From Anaerolineae bacterium (lineage in GTDB: Bacteria > Chloroflexota > Anaerolineae > Anaerolineales > Villigracilaceae), in NCBI GenBank assembly GCA_017303655.1, contig JAFLCE010000022.1, positions 1 through 48,941 of the forward strand: a stretch of 48,941 nucleotides of DNA, given 5' to 3'. The notes below the pieces were generated by a model, which saw nothing but the letters and a program-made list of their open reading frames with translations, did not search any database and had not been told where the DNA came from. The position numbers and the translations under genes are program-made. Below are positions 40,892-48,941 of this stretch, one piece after another. Numbering within the stretch: the first letter of the stretch is position 1; every line of letters begins with the position of its first letter.

Positions 40892-41548
40892 ATGAAGACC
40901 ACCACCCTTTTGGTCATTGAAGCCAAACACGCAGAGGTCCCTTCGTTTGCAGCCGATCTGCAAAAGAAGGGATTTGATGTACATATAGCGCAAAACGGCA
41001 GTAAAGCTGTGGCGTTGCTAAAAGAAGTCAGCCCGAGTCTCGTGGTTGTCAATGCTGCCTCCATGCGCAGCACCGGGTTACGCATCTGTCAGGCATTACG
41101 CGAAAAAGATGCGAGGCTTCCCATCATTCTGATCCTCGATGAAGATAAAGAAGTCAGCAAAGATGCAGCCGATGCTGTCTTGATTCTGCCTTTTACAGTT
41201 CAAAAACTTTCCAATCGCATCAAGCCTTTACTCCCCGGTGACGGCAAAAATGTTTTACATGTCGGTCCCATTCGCCTTGACCTTGAAAAGCGACGTGTGC
41301 GCTGCATGGGAAAAAGCAGTAAGCTGACTCCACGCTTGGTGACCTTGCTACAATTGTTGATGGACAAACATGGTGAAGTGGTCGAACGTGAACCCCTCTT
41401 CAAAAAAGCATGGGAAACCAATTACACCGGCGATACCCGCACCCTTGATGTACATATCTCATGGTTGCGACGCGCCATTGAGCTCGACCCTGATAACCCA
41501 AAATTCCTCAAGACCGTACGCGGCGTGGGCTATCGCTTAGATATTTAG
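40892..41548 (+). CDS. OmpR-type winged-helix regulator with degenerate receiver
   Basis: The 218-aa protein has a receiver-fold N-terminus (about 1-115) and an OmpR-type DNA-binding domain (about 120-216, with KLTPRLVTLLQLLMDKHGEVVERE and TLDVHISWLRRAIE, ending VRGVGYRLDI). The receiver lacks key residues: the acidic pair is IEAK, the phosphoacceptor is N54 in VVVNA, and KPF is LPF (99-101). It cannot take a phosphate in the normal way. No kinase gene is near. It is convergent with, and overlaps by 12 bp, the methyltransferase gene. Confidence 0.9.
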   Translation: MKTTTLLVIEAKHAEVPSFAADLQKKGFDVHIAQNGSKAVALLKEVSPSLVVVNAASMRSTGLRICQALREKDARLPIILILDEDKEVSKDAADAVLILPFTVQKLSNRIKPLLPGDGKNVLHVGPIRLDLEKRRVRCMGKSSKLTPRLVTLLQLLMDKHGEVVEREPLFKKAWETNYTGDTRTLDVHISWLRRAIELDPDNPKFLKTVRGVGYRLDI

Positions 41549-42760
41549 CTCGAATTGCTTACCCTCAACAGTAACTAATCGGATGCAGATCTTGCCTCCG
41601 ATTTTTATTTTTAATTCCATGGGAATCTCCCCGCTTCGTACGTGACGTTGAGCCTGTGCAGCACTTCGGAAGGTTTTCCCATCCCAAGCCGGGTCCACTT
41701 CCCAAAAATCCACATCTAGTGATGTGCGTAATTGGATCGCATCTCCACTAATCTTAAACTTGATCTTCTTGGATTTTGTGGCAACTTTCGTCTTTATCGT
41801 TACATCACGTTCCACTGAAAAAACAGACTTTGTCCCAGCTAATCTTGCGCGGGCTGTATGAACCGCACGGATCGATTCGTCACAAGTGATAAATCGGCGC
41901 CCATGTTTAGCAGCGACCAAAGAAGTGGTACCGGAGCCGCAGAAAAAATCTGCGACGATGTCATTCTTATTGGAAGAGGCAAGAATGATGCGTGCAAGCA
42001 TGGCTTCGGGTTTTTGGGTGGGGTAACCTGTGCGTTCGTTATGCAGGCGCGCTACCACAGGGAAGTACCACCAATCTTCAGGGACTTTGCCGCGCTCCAA
42101 GTCTGGGACTTTACCAAAGCCAGCCTTTTTTGATGCTTTAAAAGTTGCCACTGTGTTGGGGTTATACGGCTCGCGGATATCATCTACATTGAAAACATAA
42201 TCCTTGCTTTTGGCATACATCAGGATCGTGTCGTGTTTACGGTTGAATGCTGTACGAATTGGAGAAGGACCGTGATAAGCCCAAATGATCTCGTTGATGA
42301 AATTTTCTGCGCCGAAGATCTCATCGAGGATGAGGCGGGCATGCGCATCAGCATGCCAGTCGAGGTGGAGATATAAAGTTCCATTTGGGGCAAGCAGGCG
42401 ATGCATGAGATGCAAGCGTTCGTAAAGGAACCCTAAATAGGAATCAATATCTGTCCAAGAATCGTGATAGCCCTCTGCTAATTTCCACTTGGAAGGCTTA
42501 CGCGAATCCTCGCCCCTACCTACGCGGGCATGGAATTGTCGGTTGGTAAAAAATGGTGGGTCAGCGTAGATAAGGTTGATGCGCCCCTCATACTCAGGGA
42601 GCAAAGCCGCCATAACGGCAAGGTTGTCCCCTTGAATGATTCGCCCCTCGGGACGCGATTTAGGATAGCCACGCCCTTTCGGGTGTACGACCGAGTCGAG
42701 GGTTAACGTGGCAGGTTGCGGCGAAGGAAGATGCTTCCCGTTCCAGTGTAGGATAGGCAT
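41537..42760 (-). CDS. Beta-class DNA methyltransferase (N6-adenine or N4-cytosine), orphan
   Basis: The 407-aa protein has DPPF (67-70, motif IV) before the SAM motif I FFCGSGTT (272-279), which marks the beta class. A target-recognition part lies between. The C-terminal 85 residues (about 320-407) are an extra basic/beta domain without known role. No restriction enzyme gene is near, so it could act in epigenetic control or protection. There is no clear ribosome binding site. Confidence 0.92.
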   Translation of the reverse strand: MPILHWNGKHLPSPQPATLTLDSVVHPKGRGYPKSRPEGRIIQGDNLAVMAALLPEYEGRINLIYADPPFFTNRQFHARVGRGEDSRKPSKWKLAEGYHDSWTDIDSYLGFLYERLHLMHRLLAPNGTLYLHLDWHADAHARLILDEIFGAENFINEIIWAYHGPSPIRTAFNRKHDTILMYAKSKDYVFNVDDIREPYNPNTVATFKASKKAGFGKVPDLERGKVPEDWWYFPVVARLHNERTGYPTQKPEAMLARIILASSNKNDIVADFFCGSGTTSLVAAKHGRRFITCDESIRAVHTARARLAGTKSVFSVERDVTIKTKVATKSKKIKFKISGDAIQLRTSLDVDFWEVDPAWDGKTFRSAAQAQRHVRSGEIPMELKIKIGGKICIRLVTVEGKQFELNI

Positions 42761-42816: not shown

Positions 42817-43905
42817 TTAATAATGAATTTCGACAGTTGTGCCCAGTCCGCGAGTGGCAACCCGTTCAATTGTAGGCGCCAGAGGTACGGGACTGCACCA
42901 GCGGAAGAGCCAGTTGGCTTCGTTGCTGCGCATGTTGATACAACCATGGCTCATAGGCGAGCCGAAATTTTCGTGCCAGTAGGTGCCATGAAAAGCATGA
43001 CCCTGCCGGGTGAAGAAGGACGTCCACGGGACGCCGGGTAGTACGTAGTTATCGACATCGGCTAAGACGTTGCCCGTGGTTTGTTCACCGAAATAACTAT
43101 AGCCCATATGCTTGGCGGGAACTTTGTCGAGAATGGAGAATTTACCCGTGGGGGTAGTGGTGGGAATGCCTGTGCCACCAGTCGGGTCGCCGGGCACACC
43201 AGAAGAGATATTGGTCTTAAAGACCAGACTGCCATATTCATAGGCAGATAGAGTCTGTGTGGAAAGATTGACTTCAATGAGTTTCTCTTCGTAGGGAACA
43301 TCTGGCGAAAGGGGTGCAATAAGCTCAGGTTGAAACACGCGCATGTGAATGGCAGGCGCGTAATACGTGACGTTGGAGTCAAGCTCGTCGAAGATGCGAT
43401 ACCAGGGTCCGTCATAATCTGCCATGACAGGTCCCTGCTCAACGGCTTCGATGAAATGCACCGAACCATAATACAAAGGCGGCGCCAATTGCTGCCAGCC
43501 ATACGCTTTAGAGTAACGGTATGGGTTGGTAAATGGAACCGAGATATCGGCGATCAGACGTGTGCCTGCAGGGATGGAACTCAACGGCTTTTGGTAGACG
43601 GTCTTCACGCGATGCAGACGTCCGCGATGGAGGTAGCCCCCCCACACCTTATACCAGACCGGGTTGTGTTCGGGCTCTTCTGCTTTCACTTCGCCATATA
43701 CATGCACCAACTCGTCGCGATAATGCGTCAGTTCGATGCGGCTTTGATCGGTCGGCTCTTTGCGCACAGGCATATCGGCTGTGGCAATGCGCACAACAAA
43801 ACTATCGTCAAAATCGGTCAGCCCAGGCAGGAAGGGCGAAAACGCCAACCCGCCAAGGGTGAGTCCGCTTAGTTTTAGGAAATCTCTACGGTTAATACGC
43901 TTCAT
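42817..43905 (-). CDS. Tat-exported L,D-transpeptidase (YkuD domain), paralogue
   Basis: The 362-aa protein starts with the Tat motif NRRDFLK (5-11) and a hydrophobic h-region. A middle part has the same layout as that of the 25157-26323 protein, and the YkuD domain carries HGTYWHENFGSPMSHGCINMRS with the catalytic Cys. It probably cross-links peptidoglycan. TAAAAT is 7 nt before ATG 43905 on the minus strand, a leaderless arrangement. Confidence 0.93.
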   Translation of the reverse strand: MKRINRRDFLKLSGLTLGGLAFSPFLPGLTDFDDSFVVRIATADMPVRKEPTDQSRIELTHYRDELVHVYGEVKAEEPEHNPVWYKVWGGYLHRGRLHRVKTVYQKPLSSIPAGTRLIADISVPFTNPYRYSKAYGWQQLAPPLYYGSVHFIEAVEQGPVMADYDGPWYRIFDELDSNVTYYAPAIHMRVFQPELIAPLSPDVPYEEKLIEVNLSTQTLSAYEYGSLVFKTNISSGVPGDPTGGTGIPTTTPTGKFSILDKVPAKHMGYSYFGEQTTGNVLADVDNYVLPGVPWTSFFTRQGHAFHGTYWHENFGSPMSHGCINMRSNEANWLFRWCSPVPLAPTIERVATRGLGTTVEIHY

Positions 43906-44734: not shown

Positions 44735-45109
44735 ATGACGACTGACGATCTAATCAAACTCGAAATTGAAGTTTTAGCAGAAGATACAACAAAAGAAGAA
44801 CTCGACAAGATGACGCGAAATCTGCTGGCAGAATTACGCGAAACAGATGTTGAGTCTGTTAGTTTAGTGTCTACAGGACAAGCACCAGCGGGAAGTAAAG
44901 GCGACCCCATCACTATTGGACAATTGGCAATTGAGGTTTTACCTGCTGCGATACCCAGTGTGATTGCCTTGATCCAAGCCTGGGTCATGCGTGGACAAGG
45001 ACGGAATATCAAATTCAAAGGCAACGGCATTGAATTCGAAGGGTCGCCGGAAGAACTTAGAAAATTGCTTACAAAGCTTGAAAAAAAGGAAAAGAAAAAG
45101 AAGAAATGA
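44735..45109 (+). CDS. EACC1-type effector-associated protein
   Basis: The 124-aa protein has an N-terminal alpha/beta part (about 1-47, with LLAELRETDVESVSL), the APAGSKG turn (51-57), one hydrophobic helix (about 68-86), a beta strand pair with FKGNGIEFEG and a final Lys-rich helix. This is the pattern I know as effector-associated constant component 1, found with caspase-like and other effectors in bacterial conflict systems. Its stop overlaps the caspase-fusion start by ATGA, so both are made together. It is likely a membrane-linked partner of that effector. Confidence 0.8.
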   Translation: MTTDDLIKLEIEVLAEDTTKEELDKMTRNLLAELRETDVESVSLVSTGQAPAGSKGDPITIGQLAIEVLPAAIPSVIALIQAWVMRGQGRNIKFKGNGIEFEGSPEELRKLLTKLEKKEKKKKK

Positions 45110-47946
45110 GCGGGAAATACGCGCTCGTCATCGGCAATACCGAATACACAGACTCAGGTCTGGCAAAGTTGACCGCGCCTGGTAGGGACGCGGAAGAGTT
45201 TGCGCGTGTGCTCAGTTCGCCGGAAATTGCCGGGTTCGATGAAGTACTGAAGTTCACCAATGAGAATGTATTCAACCTCAATGAAGCCATCGAGGGATTC
45301 TTTTTGGGGAAGAAGCCAGACGACCTGCTGATCTTTTATTTCTCTGGGCACGGCGTGAGAGACGAATCAGGTTCGCTATTCCTCGCCGTGAAGAACACAA
45401 ACCGCGCGAGACTGCGCTCCACTTCCATCAAAGCAGATTTTGTGCGTGAGATGATGGATCAAGGCCGTTCGAGACGGCAGGTCATCATTTTGGACTGCTG
45501 TAACAGTGGCGCATTCGCGAATGGAACAAAAGCCGAAACAGGTGGCGCGATGGGCATCGCAGCCACTTTCAAAGGAACAGGTTATGGTCGGGTTATCTTA
45601 ACCGCAACCGATTCAACGCAATTTGCATGGGAAGGGGACAAAATCATCGGGGATAAAATCACCAATTCTTTATTTACCCATTTCCTCGTTAAAGGGTTAG
45701 AAGGTGAGGCAGATGAAGATGGGGATGGAAAAATCACCGTTGACGAATTATATGATTATGCCTACAAACAAATTGTCAGTCATACACCGAAACAAACTCC
45801 GGGCAAATGGTCTTATCAACAACAGGGCGAAATCATTCTACGCCAAAGCACGCGGATCGAAGATATCAAGCCGGTTCCCCTGCCGGATGATCTGCTCGCG
45901 GCTGCAAAAAACTCTTTCCCATACGTACGGGAAGCGGCAGTACGACAATTAGACGAGTTGCTCAAAGGCAAAAATCTTGGTTTAGCACGTTCCGCGAGAG
46001 AAACACTGGAACATATTGCAGAGAACGATGACAGCAAGACTATCTCGCGTGCCGCATTTCAGGCACTAGAAGCAATTCGACAGGCTGAGCAAGGAGCATT
46101 TCAAAAAGCAGAGGAAGAACGTCTCGCCAAATTGGAAGTTGAGCGCATTGCTGAAGAGGAAAGACAAGTTCGCGAACAAGCCGAAGCAGAGCGGAAGGCA
46201 GAAGCTGAAAGGTTAGCCGCTGCCCAAAAAGCGGAAGAAGAACGTATCGCCAAAGCGAAACTCGAAACAGAACGACTCGCGGAAGAAAAGCGCCTTGCTG
46301 ACCAAGCCGAAAAGGAACGGCAAGCAAAAGCAGAAGCCAAAAGACTTGCCGACGAGAAAGCCGCAACAGAACAGTTAGCTGTTCAAAAAGCTGAAGAAGA
46401 AAGAATCGCCAAAGCCAAATTGGAAGCATATCGGCTAGCAGAAGAAAAGAGGTTTGCCGAGGAAGCTGAAAAACGAAGGATGGCTGCAAAACAAGAACAA
46501 GACGAGAAAGAGCACCTTGCCAAAGCCAAATTAGAAATTGAGCGGTTGACAGAAGAAAAGAAACGCGGCGAAGTCGCGGAAAGGCAACGAATTGCCAAAA
46601 CTAGAGTTGAACAGAGCACTCAACAAGCATCTACTACAGTTCCTAAACCACAAAAAAATACTAACACAACTTCTCCATTATCAATCATGGCAAAGATAGG
46701 CGTGACATTCCTTATTCTTGTTACTGGATTTTACGCAGTTAATTTATCGTCCCCAAAAAGCTTACCCCCAACACCTACCGAAAATGATGCGCATGCGGTA
46801 ACTGAAGAAACCTCTGAAGTCCCGCTCAGCACTAATGTACAAGCCACTGAACCTTTAAAAGTTGTTGAGATAACCCTGTGGCATGCCTATGGAACTGGTT
46901 CCGCTGAAATAATTGAGCTAAACAAATTAATTAACCAAGCTGCTGTTGACCTACCTCAATTCAAAATCAATGCACAACAGGTCCCCTTCAACGACATCTT
47001 CAACAAGTATGACACCGATGTTGCTGCTGGTGGTGGTCCTGATATGTTCATCGCCCCGAACGACAACCTTGGTGGACAAGCTCGCGCTGGCACTATCGCC
47101 GACATTACCGACCTCGTTGCCGGTAAACTTGGCGACTACAGCGAACTCTCCCAGGGCGGCATGATGTATGACGGCAAGATGTATGGTCTTCCTGAATCCC
47201 TCAAGGCTATTGCCTTGTGGTACAACACCGACATGCTCCCCGAAGCTCCTGCCACCACCGACGAACTCAAAGCGTTGATGGAAGGCGGCACCCCGGTCGC
47301 CATCAGCTTCGGCTGCTACCATCACTGGGGCTTCTTCGGCTCCTTCGGCGGTCAGATCTTCGATGACGAATTCAATTTCGTTGCCGACGAAGCCAATCAG
47401 GCGAACGTTGCTTCCGCCATATCCTACCTCAATGATCTCTATCAGATCTCTGTGGCGAACGGCTGGCCCCGAAATGATAGTGACGGTCTCGCTGCCTTCA
47501 CCGAAGGCAGCGTAGCCGCAATCACCAACGGCAACTGGGCGATAGATGACTATCGCAACGCTCTCGGCGACAAACTCGCTGTGGCTCCGATCCCCGCTGG
47601 TCCTGGTGGCGCCTCCAACTCGCTCCTCCTTGTTGACGGCTGGTACTTCAACCCGAACAGCGAAAACACCGAAGCTGCGATCGAGGTCGCTCTCTACCTG
47701 ACCAACACCGCTGCCTCCCAGTCCATGATGGATAACGCCGGTCACGTTCCTGCCAACACCACTGTTGAAGTGACCGACCCGCTCATCCAGGGCTTGCTCG
47801 ATGCCTTCTCCACCTCTTACTTCCGCCCTCAGGTGGAAGCCATGGGATACTATTGGGGCAATTTCTGCGGAACCGATCAGGTCTTTGATGCCGGAACCCC
47901 GGCTGCTGACTGGGTCAAGACCGCCTTCGAAGGCGCCACCAAGTAA
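45106..47946 (+). CDS. Transmembrane caspase with C-terminal solute-binding sensor domain
   Basis: The 946-aa protein has five parts. A caspase-like (C14) domain (about 1-240) has YALVIGNTEY, SGHG with His82 and DCCNSG with Cys132. A helical, HEAT-like part (about 260-320) follows. A long charged Ala/Glu/Lys/Arg coiled coil (about 322-505) resembles TolA stems. One membrane helix (about 528-549) is next. Last is a complete family 1 solute-binding domain (about 586-946, with LWHAYGTG, GGGPDMF, YGLPES), which must face outward. The layout suggests that sugar or other ligand binding outside controls a protease inside. The C-terminal third differs in codon use. The companion EACC1 gene supports a conflict or cell-death role. 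Confidence 0.92.
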   Translation: MSGKYALVIGNTEYTDSGLAKLTAPGRDAEEFARVLSSPEIAGFDEVLKFTNENVFNLNEAIEGFFLGKKPDDLLIFYFSGHGVRDESGSLFLAVKNTNRARLRSTSIKADFVREMMDQGRSRRQVIILDCCNSGAFANGTKAETGGAMGIAATFKGTGYGRVILTATDSTQFAWEGDKIIGDKITNSLFTHFLVKGLEGEADEDGDGKITVDELYDYAYKQIVSHTPKQTPGKWSYQQQGEIILRQSTRIEDIKPVPLPDDLLAAAKNSFPYVREAAVRQLDELLKGKNLGLARSARETLEHIAENDDSKTISRAAFQALEAIRQAEQGAFQKAEEERLAKLEVERIAEEERQVREQAEAERKAEAERLAAAQKAEEERIAKAKLETERLAEEKRLADQAEKERQAKAEAKRLADEKAATEQLAVQKAEEERIAKAKLEAYRLAEEKRFAEEAEKRRMAAKQEQDEKEHLAKAKLEIERLTEEKKRGEVAERQRIAKTRVEQSTQQASTTVPKPQKNTNTTSPLSIMAKIGVTFLILVTGFYAVNLSSPKSLPPTPTENDAHAVTEETSEVPLSTNVQATEPLKVVEITLWHAYGTGSAEIIELNKLINQAAVDLPQFKINAQQVPFNDIFNKYDTDVAAGGGPDMFIAPNDNLGGQARAGTIADITDLVAGKLGDYSELSQGGMMYDGKMYGLPESLKAIALWYNTDMLPEAPATTDELKALMEGGTPVAISFGCYHHWGFFGSFGGQIFDDEFNFVADEANQANVASAISYLNDLYQISVANGWPRNDSDGLAAFTEGSVAAITNGNWAIDDYRNALGDKLAVAPIPAGPGGASNSLLLVDGWYFNPNSENTEAAIEVALYLTNTAASQSMMDNAGHVPANTTVEVTDPLIQGLLDAFSTSYFRPQVEAMGYYWGNFCGTDQVFDAGTPAADWVKTAFEGATK

Positions 47947-48006: not shown

Positions 48007-48941
48007 CTATTTTTCTTTCTTCTTGCTGACCTTCTTTTTTTCAACAGGCTTTTTTGCTAATTCTTCCCCTTTCGGGGATGATTTCACAGTTGTCCCTTTT
48101 TTCGCACTTACCTTCGGCTTGCTGACCGTTTTCTTTTCAACAGCCTTTTTCTTCGCAGCAGTCTTCGTTACAACTTTCGTCGCAGCAGGTGCTTTCTTCA
48201 CGGCTTTTGTCTTGACTGCGGTTTTCTTTGGTGTGGTTTTCTTTGAGACTTTTGCCTTGACAACAGTCTTCTTTACCGCAGGCTTTTTGGCGGCGCGTTT
48301 CTTTTTGGCGGGTTTTTCTTCAACCACGGTCTCGACCTTGGCAAACATCTTCTGCCATTGGCCATGAATGGATGAAACGCCTGCGCCGTTCAATTTCTCG
48401 CAAATCGTCCCCCACTCTTTGTCGTACACGAAGCGGAAGTCCATGAAGGCGTGGCATTGATACGCGCCGAGTTCCACGTACATGCCATTCTTCCAGATCT
48501 CTTCGCAGGAGCGGATGAATTCCAATTGCGAGGAATAATCTTTGAAGATCATATAACCCTGGCGCGGAAGACCAAGTCCTTCGGCGAGGTTACGGCGTTT
48601 GAGTTTGCCGGAACCTTTATCAAGCACACCGGTAGAGGTTTTGATCCAACCTTTGGTATCGCCAAAGGTATTGTGATAAATGACCAAACCGCGTTCTTCG
48701 TTGAGACGGTTGGAATAGGCGAAGACGTTTTCGTCGATTCCGCTGTAGGGTTTTTGAAGGTCAAAGAGTAGGAAATTCTCCACGTCAGCGAACAGGCTGC
48801 GGCGGTGAAGGAGCGGGAAGATACGCCATTCATGTGCCTGAATCAAGCCATCATCTTGAGTCTCTTCCCATTTGGGTCGGCGGAATTCCATCCCGTATTT
48901 TTCAGAGAAGCCCTCTACTTGTCCATGACCGAACATGGGCA
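48007..48941 (-). CDS. C-terminal part of a large protein with histone H1-like tail (possible glycoside hydrolase)
   Basis: The frame is open to the window edge, so the true start is outside; the ATG at 48936 is probably internal. The first 205 residues (MFGHGQVEGFSEKYGMEF, then WRIFPLLHRRSLFADVENFLLFDL and GYMIFKDYSSQLEF) look to me like the far C-terminal region of large alpha-amylase-family enzymes in Chloroflexota, but without a search this is tentative. The last 100 residues are almost only Lys, Ala, Thr, Val and Pro with AKK/KKT-type repeats, like histone H1 or the AlgP/Hc1 tails, which bind DNA or polyanions. A catalytic enzyme with such a tail is unusual. Confidence 0.65.
   Translation of the reverse strand, partial: PMFGHGQVEGFSEKYGMEFRRPKWEETQDDGLIQAHEWRIFPLLHRRSLFADVENFLLFDLQKPYSGIDENVFAYSNRLNEERGLVIYHNTFGDTKGWIKTSTGVLDKGSGKLKRRNLAEGLGLPRQGYMIFKDYSSQLEFIRSCEEIWKNGMYVELGAYQCHAFMDFRFVYDKEWGTICEKLNGAGVSSIHGQWQKMFAKVETVVEEKPAKKKRAAKKPAVKKTVVKAKVSKKTTPKKTAVKTKAVKKAPAATKVVTKTAAKKKAVEKKTVSKPKVSAKKGTTVKSSPKGEELAKKPVEKKKVSKKKEK

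What the first reader, a model, noticed from the sequence alone, without database searches (positions are those of the whole stretch)
44735..47946. Candidate new system: EACC1 partner plus a ligand-sensing transmembrane caspase
Seen: a 124-aa EACC1-type gene overlaps (ATGA) a 946-aa gene that joins a caspase-like domain with intact His82/Cys132, a HEAT-like part, a 180-residue coiled coil, one membrane helix and a full extracytoplasmic solute-binding domain. Known: EACC1 and caspase-like proteases occur together in bacterial conflict and programmed cell death loci; family 1 solute-binding domains bind sugars for ABC importers. Inferred: ligand binding outside is passed through the coiled coil to a protease inside, thus a receptor caspase. 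No ABC permease genes lie next to it, so the binding domain is not serving a transporter here. I know of no described system with this fusion.
Basis: partly seen in the sequence, partly recalled or inferred. Interest (0 to 1): 0.9.

Follow-up and report, generated by a model that had tools for sequence, protein, structure and literature searches.

The report
Membrane caspase with sugar-binding outer domain
A two-gene locus in a Chloroflexota bacterium encodes a caspase-like protease anchored in the membrane with a sugar-binding-type domain on the far side; the general design was described in 2020, and what is new here is that the outer domain can be traced to a maltose-type uptake gene of sister species.

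Summary
Window 44735-45109 (124 aa) overlaps 45106-47946 (946 aa) by ATGA. The large protein joins an EACC1-associated caspase domain (NCBIfam NF047832; His82/Cys132 intact), helical repeats, a ~180-residue helix, one membrane helix (527-545) and a MalE-type solute-binding domain. The small protein is homologous to EACC1-type proteins beside other caspases.

The claim of an undescribed system fails. Kaur et al. 2020 (PMC7159879) defined this two-gene system and list variants with a TM helix and a downstream extracellular periplasmic-binding domain. Among 30 relatives scanned I found four further caspase-TM-binding-protein fusions (SBP_bac_5 three times, Peripla_BP_6 once).

New details: the binding domain is orthologous to a free-standing SBP of 29 of 56 same-genus genomes, part of a mal-type ABC operon where checked; in this genome no free copy and no orthologue of its permease was found. 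Both flanks of the locus are native, which argues against a simple misjoin. But the SBP part is mosaic: nt 46867-46977 differ from the nearest free copy at 37% of sites, the rest at 10%, with the switch at a 44-nt exact match: recombination or, less likely, a chimeric assembly.

Most likely mechanism: an outside ligand gates an inside protease. Untested.

The parts
44735..45109 (+). EACC1-type partner, 124 aa; stop overlaps the start of the caspase gene (ATGA)
   Evidence: 46% identical over 116 aa to the gene upstream of the nearest caspase relative (L063); a profile from nine such proteins finds (E<=0.1) one within 400 bp, same strand, of 70 of 166 caspase ORFs, duplicates included
45106..47946 (+). 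946-aa membrane caspase with MalE-type C-terminal domain
45115..45804 (+). Caspase (Peptidase_C14 / NF047832) domain, residues 4-233; His82, Cys132
45886..46026 (+). Helical repeat part, about residues 261-307 (HEAT-like)
   Evidence: AlphaFold2 helices 261-267, 272-286, 291-307 at high pLDDT; Pfam HEAT_2 in relatives L142, L064, L084, not in this protein
46036..46581 (+). Continuous charged helix, residues 311-492 (coiled coil or single alpha-helix rod)
   Evidence: composition of residues 326-515: E 45, A 39, K 24, R 21 of 190
46684..46740 (+). Transmembrane segment, residues 527-545
   Evidence: hydrophobicity only; 3 K/R and 1 D/E before (500-526), 2 K/R and 7 D/E after (546-590)
46867..46977 (+). 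First 37 codons of the SBP domain, strongly diverged from the free-standing copies compared
46978..47946 (+). Body of the MalE-type SBP domain (0.81-0.90 nt identity to ten free-standing copies of the genus)
   Evidence: DNA similarity ends at the stop codon
48007..48936 (-). C-terminal part of an alpha-amylase-like protein cut by the contig end; native right flank (not part of the system)
   Evidence: Pfam Alpha-amylase in the full-length orthologue of G017
42817..43905 (-). YkuD L,D-transpeptidase; native left flank (not part of the system)

Best explanation
This is an EACC1-caspase two-gene system (Kaur et al. 2020 'System 4') whose variable C-terminal domain is a MalE-type solute-binding domain. 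Shown by sequence: a caspase with intact dyad and no signal peptide evident, helical repeats, a long helix, one TM segment, and an SBP domain orthologous to the binding protein of the genus's mal-type ABC importer. Inferred: the SBP faces outside; closing on (or losing) an oligosaccharide changes the arrangement of the long helices and so the pairing or proximity of the caspase domains inside; the active protease, with its EACC1 partner, cuts itself and/or host proteins and stops or kills the cell. The SBP acts as a sensor, not as a transporter part. The domain came from a mal-operon-type binding protein, and its body was probably exchanged by recombination near 46978.
For: Caspase family, EACC1-type partner and ATGA overlap. 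Intact dyad here, and the dyad motifs in 30 of the 31 nearest caspases. In 14 of these 31 a single hydrophobic TM segment precedes at least 80 further residues; scanned ectodomains include SBP_bac_8 (this one), SBP_bac_5 (L142, L193), FGE-sulfatase (L063, L199, L246, L204, L208), WD40 (L062), PD40 (L067) and PEGA (L212). A binding or propeller domain beyond the TM is easier to read as a sensor than as a cytoplasmic effector. The SBP half matches free-standing genes at 66-89% aa identity (rows cover different stretches) in 29 of 56 same-genus genomes; in G050 it is followed by two BPD_transp_1 permeases and two alpha-amylases. No permease orthologue in this assembly (best 31%). The SBP body is under purifying selection (dN/dS about 0.11 on its own branch; ten free copies 0.055-0.151).
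Against: No experiment and no ligand. The long linker and single TM could simply tether the protein. AlphaFold2 is weak over the TM and the SBP, so coupling cannot be judged. Kaur et al. read the variable domains as effectors deployed by autoproteolysis. Of the 31 nearest caspases 7 have no TM segment and 9 have several, so membrane anchoring with an ectodomain is not general even here. The mosaic junction leaves room for an assembly error. Residues that I align with recalled maltose contacts of E. coli MBP are not all kept, so the ligand may not be maltodextrin.
Confidence: 0.55

Rival explanations
1. Variable domain as effector: the caspase is activated by EACC1 at the membrane and cuts its own chain, releasing or inactivating the C-terminal domain; the SBP is cargo, not a sensor.
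For: This is how Kaur et al. interpret the C-terminal domains of the system. The long charged helix offers cleavable sites (inference).
Against: The domain is beyond a TM segment; FGE, propeller and PBP ectodomains in relatives have no obvious toxic role outside (inference). The SBP body keeps ordinary purifying selection.
Confidence: 0.22
2. Assembly chimera: a caspase gene with another, diverged SBP-like end was joined in silico to a free-standing malE-like gene at the shared 44-nt stretch 46978-47021.
For: Sharp step in divergence (41/111 against 99/966 differences to G034, Fisher p 5.5e-12; the free pair G050-G034 gives 20/111 and 98/966) and in third positions of codons alike at the first two (17/25 against 71/303); GC3 0.47 to 0.68; exact 44-nt run with G050 and G034. 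The assembly is fragmented (172 contigs, 5.82% contamination), and the fusion was not found in any other genome searched.
Against: Left flank (L,D-transpeptidase) and right flank (amylase-like gene) are near neighbours in sister genomes, and other caspases sit between them in G017 and G018, so an error needs two joins; at the second one, the stop codon, no similarity to the free copies continues. SBP-like coding sequence is already fused in frame upstream of the break (46867-46977). Even in this case a caspase-SBP design remains.
Confidence: 0.12
3. The fused SBP still serves an ABC importer elsewhere in the genome and the caspase part is incidental.
For: The genome has 14 other SBP_bac_8 matches and 21 matches to a MalF protein at E<=0.001.
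Against: None of these is a close orthologue of the cognate permease (best 31% identity); DNA of the G050 mal locus matches this genome well only at the SBP, otherwise short pieces; no free-standing SBP orthologue. A 946-aa tethered protease is an odd importer part.
Confidence: 0.06
4. Proteolysis or cell-wall house-keeping unrelated to conflict or cell death.
For: Neighbours are an L,D-transpeptidase and a glycoside-hydrolase-like gene. Of ten neighbouring proteins scanned with PADLOC, the informative hit is one DNA methyltransferase (41537-42760); one response-regulator-like protein (40892-41548) has a weak PD-T4-6 match. So no recognised defence island.
Against: The neighbours also occur in genomes without the caspase, and the methyltransferase also lies at the loci of G017 and G018 (by sequence start); the caspase is patchy (19 of 400 order genomes, own included, at E<=1e-60) and varies at one site, typical of accessory conflict genes (inference).
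Confidence: 0.05

Closest known systems
[quoted passage not shown] 2020, PMC7159879; section 33 read in full, other passages by term)
   Same: 5' EACC1 gene, 3' gene with N-terminal caspase and variable C-terminus; TM helices with a downstream extracellular PBP domain are named as one variant
   Different: Section 33 does not say which PBP family; here a MalE-type (SBP_bac_1/8) domain with an identifiable free-standing orthologue and a mosaic junction. The paper calls the system prevalent in actinobacteria and sporadic in proteobacteria; here Chloroflexota (inferred from named records that match the same-genus genomes)
Metacaspases with ANF_receptor or CHASE2 receptor domains (Asplund-Samuelsson et al. 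2012, PMC3501461; passages read)
   Same: Caspase joined to an extracellular receptor domain; for CHASE2 the paper proposes receptor outside, caspase inside
   Different: Cyanobacterial single sequences, other receptor folds; no EACC1 partner mentioned in the passages read
EACC2-caspase / TRADD-N systems (PMC8195603; passages read)
   Same: Constant caspase module with variable, sometimes extracellular sensor domains (CHASE2)
   Different: Different constant component (EACC2)
mal-type ABC importer SBP of sister species (G050, L048, and others)
   Same: SBP domain orthologous over residues 588-946 (blastp 77-91% in the full-length genus copies)
   Different: Free-standing, with its own N-terminal leader, beside MalK/MalF/MalG-type genes and alpha-amylases
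Caspase-TM-SBP_bac_5 proteins L142/L202 (Thermoflexales), L193 (Anaerolineae), L222 (Streptosporangiaceae) and caspase-TM-Peripla_BP_6 L243 (Leptolyngbyaceae), found here
   Same: Same overall architecture
   Different: Other binding-protein families; an EACC1-like ORF directly upstream only in L222 and L243

Membership tests
EACC1-caspase two-gene system (Kaur 2020 System 4) | 3' gene with N-terminal caspase of the EACC1-associated type | tested here: met
   NF047832, 156 bits against cut-off 140
EACC1-caspase two-gene system (Kaur 2020 System 4) | 5' gene encoding EACC1 | tested here: met
   Homologous to proteins upstream of many such caspases; P0002 itself gives no PF19953 match at E<=1, one of nine homologues does, E 7e-5, so met by homology and position, not by the Pfam model
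EACC1-caspase two-gene system (Kaur 2020 System 4) | EACC1 has one conserved TM helix with small residues | tested here: inconclusive
   Hydrophobic stretch 64-82, KD 1.88; 1.34-2.47 in the other eight; AlphaFold2 (mean pLDDT 66) makes it strand + helix of a ferredoxin-like fold
EACC1-caspase two-gene system (Kaur 2020 System 4) | Variable C-terminal domain between relatives | tested here: met
   SBP, FGE-sulfatase, WD40, PD40, PEGA, multi-TM in relatives
EACC1-caspase two-gene system (Kaur 2020 System 4) | Conflict / cell-death function | not testable with these tools
   Proposed in PMC7159879 from genomics; no assay seen in the section and passages that I read
Active caspase-like (C14) protease | His-Cys dyad | tested here: met
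   H82, C132 invariant in 13 sequences
Active caspase-like (C14) protease | Proteolytic activity | not testable with these tools
   none
MalE-type solute-binding protein (SBP_bac_1/8) | Complete SBP domain by sequence | tested here: met
   Profile positions 11-267 of 279; aligned end to end with free-standing genes; Foldseek hits are SBPs, many MBP-type, though the model is weak there
MalE-type solute-binding protein (SBP_bac_1/8) | Binds maltodextrin or related sugar | not testable with these tools
   Operon context of a free copy (two alpha-amylases in G050) makes a glucan likely
ABC importer component | Cognate permease genes | tested here: not met
   None adjacent; no close orthologue in the assembly, which is 93.55% complete

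The most novel reading that the evidence does not exclude
A sugar-gated receptor caspase: the binding protein of a maltodextrin-type importer was captured as the outside sensor of an EACC1 caspase, and its body was later renewed by recombination with a circulating malE-like gene, so that an extracellular oligosaccharide (or its loss) switches a protease in the cytoplasm.
Probability: 0.3. Interest if true: 0.65.

Novelty: new member of a known kind. Interest (0 to 1): 0.42.

Why it matters
The architecture was on record as one sentence in a survey. This case adds an identifiable free-standing orthologue for the outer domain and comparators with other ectodomains on the same caspase core, including at the same chromosomal site. 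That makes an open question testable: is the variable domain of EACC1-caspase systems a sensor or an effector? A MalE-type domain has a short list of candidate ligands, so ligand-dependent activity can be assayed directly.

Tried and rejected
Rejected: a brand-new system (Kaur et al. 2020). Rejected as unlikely: use of a cognate importer. Not excluded: assembly chimera; a one-join chimera is unlikely because both flanks belong to one ancestral locus.

Tried without result: the same fusion in other genomes. Among 101 genomes (own included; at most 8 candidates scored in each) only the window's own gene matched over the whole protein, and in 400 order genomes (own included; 3 candidates scored in each) searched with residues 1-624 the longest match to another genome ended at residue 456. 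A local SBP profile run over 166 collected caspase ORFs (duplicates included) hit only the window's own gene; it is a MalE-type profile and misses other SBP families. Pfam was run on 30 of the collected caspases plus the window's, mostly chosen for a TM segment, so the number of binding-protein fusions is a lower bound. AlphaFold2 of the full protein (mean pLDDT 64, SBP half mostly under 70) did not help with coupling.

Change at otherwise invariant SBP sites: with 24 free copies the fused copy has 10 changes in 175 columns, the most of 25 sequences, half of them in the diverged first 37 codons; over the body its 5 of 152 equals two free copies, G026 and G067. With all 28 free copies it is 10 of 174 against 7 for G067 (another family) and at most 2 for the others. 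This may mean a changed binding site, or only a long separate branch; I do not build on it.

Literature searches; only the open-licence PMC library was searched.

Rows dropped: of 28 loci offered for the SBP comparison, 24 entered; the ORF picker of my script did not return L006, L009, L024 and L025 (cause not checked); they were added, which kept the first-stretch excess (41-42 of 111 differences against 150-223 of 966). L030 (G017, broken frame) was left out beforehand. Sliding-window and branch estimates used ten of the 24 (twelve, where the branch value with the diverged start included was 0.128, others 0.034-0.190).
Full report
What is there. The window (a whole 48,941-base contig, C88, of a 4.6-Mb, 172-contig assembly, 93.55% complete and 5.82% contaminated) holds a 124-aa ORF at 44735-45109 and a 946-aa ORF at 45106-47946, overlapping by ATGA. 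The 946-aa protein matches NCBIfam NF047832 'caspase, EACC1-associated type' above its cut-off, Peptidase_C14, and at its C-terminal half SBP_bac_8 and SBP_bac_1. A PADLOC caspase model also matches (E 9e-12). His82 and Cys132 are invariant among 13 relatives. Between the caspase and the SBP lie helical repeats, a continuous helix 311-492 (AlphaFold2) and one clear hydrophobic segment 527-545, with slightly more positive charge before it and more negative charge after it. It is the only Peptidase_C14 match found in the genome.

The partner. The 124-aa protein does not match the Pfam EACC1 model; one of nine aligned homologues does (E 7e-5). It is 46% identical over 116 residues to the gene upstream of the nearest caspase relative. 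A profile from the nine proteins finds a relative (E<=0.1) within 400 bp of 70 of 166 caspase ORFs, duplicates included. I therefore accept it as EACC1-type by homology and position.

The system is known. Kaur et al. 2020 (PMC7159879; passages and the whole of section 33) define the EACC1 + caspase pair with up to 50 alternative C-terminal domains and state that there are instances of TM helices with a downstream extracellular periplasmic-binding-protein domain in this position. Asplund-Samuelsson et al. 2012 (PMC3501461; [quoted passage not shown] PMC8195603 (passages) describes the parallel EACC2-caspase design. The finding is therefore a member of a described kind.

Variation of the outer domain. 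Of 152 distinct caspase ORFs collected here, 31 (the window's own included) score at least 300 bits with a profile built from the phmmer hits of the window caspase; 14 of these 31 have a single hydrophobic TM segment after the caspase and at least 80 further residues, 9 have several, 7 none and 1 a single one with a shorter tail. Pfam for the 14: binding protein 3 (this one; L142, L193), FGE-sulfatase 5 (L063, L199, L246, L204, L208), propeller 2 (L062, L067), PEGA 1 (L212), a sub-threshold lectin-like match 1 (L080), only the caspase and weak HEAT 1 (L064), not scanned 1 (L207). Two more distant proteins carry binding domains after a TM segment: L222 (SBP_bac_5, Streptosporangiaceae) and L243 (Peripla_BP_6, Leptolyngbyaceae), both with an EACC1-like ORF directly upstream. 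L142/L202 has no EACC1-like ORF in its locus, and L193 has one only on the other strand. Only 30 of the collected relatives were scanned with Pfam.

Where the SBP comes from. In a search of 101 genomes (own included), 29 of 56 other same-genus genomes have an orthologue-level match to the SBP half (66-89% identity, rows covering different stretches; in G015, G017 and G055 in broken frames). In G050 it is followed by two BPD_transp_1 permeases and two alpha-amylases, and in G025 a MalK-type ATPase lies in the same locus; the order looks alike in the other loci viewed (by eye, not by profile). The other 27 genus genomes gave no such match, so the gene is patchy in the genus. The window's genome has no free-standing orthologue (next best match 29%), no DNA match to malF/malG of G050 beyond short pieces and no close MalF orthologue (best 31%). 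The assembly is incomplete, so absence is not proved.

Is the fusion real? Both flanks are native. The right-hand gene (48007-48936, the end of an alpha-amylase-like protein) has matches in 51 of 57 genus genomes, own included. In 14 of the 29 other loci viewed, all with flanks of at most 1.5 kb, the L,D-transpeptidase or the small gene that lies left of the system here is found beyond its 3' end, sometimes with another small gene between; in 2 a caspase gene is (G018, G017), and in none the SBP. In G017 and G018 longer stretches show amylase-like gene, caspase(s), L,D-transpeptidase and methylase in the window's order. A single misjoin does not easily give this. However, the SBP part is mosaic. 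The first 111 nt (46867-46977) differ from the nearest free copy (G034) at 41 of 111 sites, the remainder at 99 of 966; an ordinary pair of free copies (G050-G034) gives 20 of 111 and 98 of 966. In codons alike at the first two positions, third positions differ in 17 of 25 and 71 of 303, so relaxed protein constraint does not explain it. GC3 goes from 0.47 (first 51 codons) to 0.68, while four free copies have 0.69-0.78 in the same first stretch. The switch falls at a 44-nt exact match with G050 and G034 (46978-47021). I read this as recombination between an older fused SBP and a malE-like gene. A chimeric assembly is possible but would need a second join near the stop codon, beyond which no similarity to the free copies is seen. 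SBP-like sequence is fused to the caspase already upstream of the switch, so the design does not depend on this question.

Selection. By pairwise counting with a three-taxon formula, the SBP body has dN/dS about 0.107 on its own branch, within 0.055-0.151 for ten free copies. It looks like a working binding domain. Its ligand is unknown; the operon context of the free copies suggests a glucan. The residues that I recall as maltose contacts of E. coli MBP are not all kept in the alignment.

Neighbourhood. Of ten neighbouring proteins scanned with PADLOC, one DNA methyltransferase (41537-42760) matches type II/III methyltransferase models, and a response-regulator-like protein (40892-41548) has a weak PD-T4-6 match; the other eight have none. 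This is no clear defence island, and the methyltransferase also lies at the loci of G017 and G018.

Mechanism. Shown: domains, order, dyad, one TM segment, partner gene. Inferred: SBP outside and caspase inside; ligand-dependent rearrangement passed through the helix to the caspase; protease action on itself or host proteins; arrest or death. I favour 'sensor' over the 'effector' reading of Kaur et al. because the swapped domains in this subfamily often lie beyond a TM segment and are binding, FGE or propeller folds. This is an argument from anatomy, not a test.

Structure searches. Foldseek with the full model finds solute-binding proteins first (E about 5e-11, TM by target about 0.5) and a MALT1 paracaspase structure at rank 15. 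The EACC1-type model (mean pLDDT 66) resembles ferredoxin-like proteins such as CutA1 (E 5e-4, TM below 0.5 by query); this is weak but does not show the single TM helix proposed for EACC1.

Noticed in passing
window 44735-45109: AlphaFold2 makes the EACC1-type protein a ferredoxin-like alpha/beta fold (mean pLDDT 66; CutA1-like hits) rather than a protein with one TM helix as proposed in 2020.
   Followed up: partly
window 46867-47021: Mosaic junction inside the SBP part: 37% divergence up to 46977, then a 44-nt exact match to two free-standing malE-like genes.
   Followed up: partly
L062:5405-10474 (G017): Two tandem EACC1-type caspases, one with a WD40 propeller beyond the TM and one with several TM segments, at the same chromosomal site as the window's system: a possible exchange site for such systems.
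   Followed up: partly
[quoted passage not shown] G443 has three caspase matches with frames of the same length, 861 aa.
   Followed up: no
L061, L065, L066: The malE-like gene is in broken frames in G017, G015 and G055: assembly errors or decay of the mal operon.
   Followed up: no
window 46220-46470: The long helix contains internal near-repeats (self-match peaks at 90 and 53 residues); L193 has a regular short-unit version of the same helix.
   Followed up: no
window 41537-42760: A DNA methyltransferase (N6_N4_Mtase; type II/III MTase models) lies near the system, but also at the corresponding loci of G017 and G018.
   Followed up: partly
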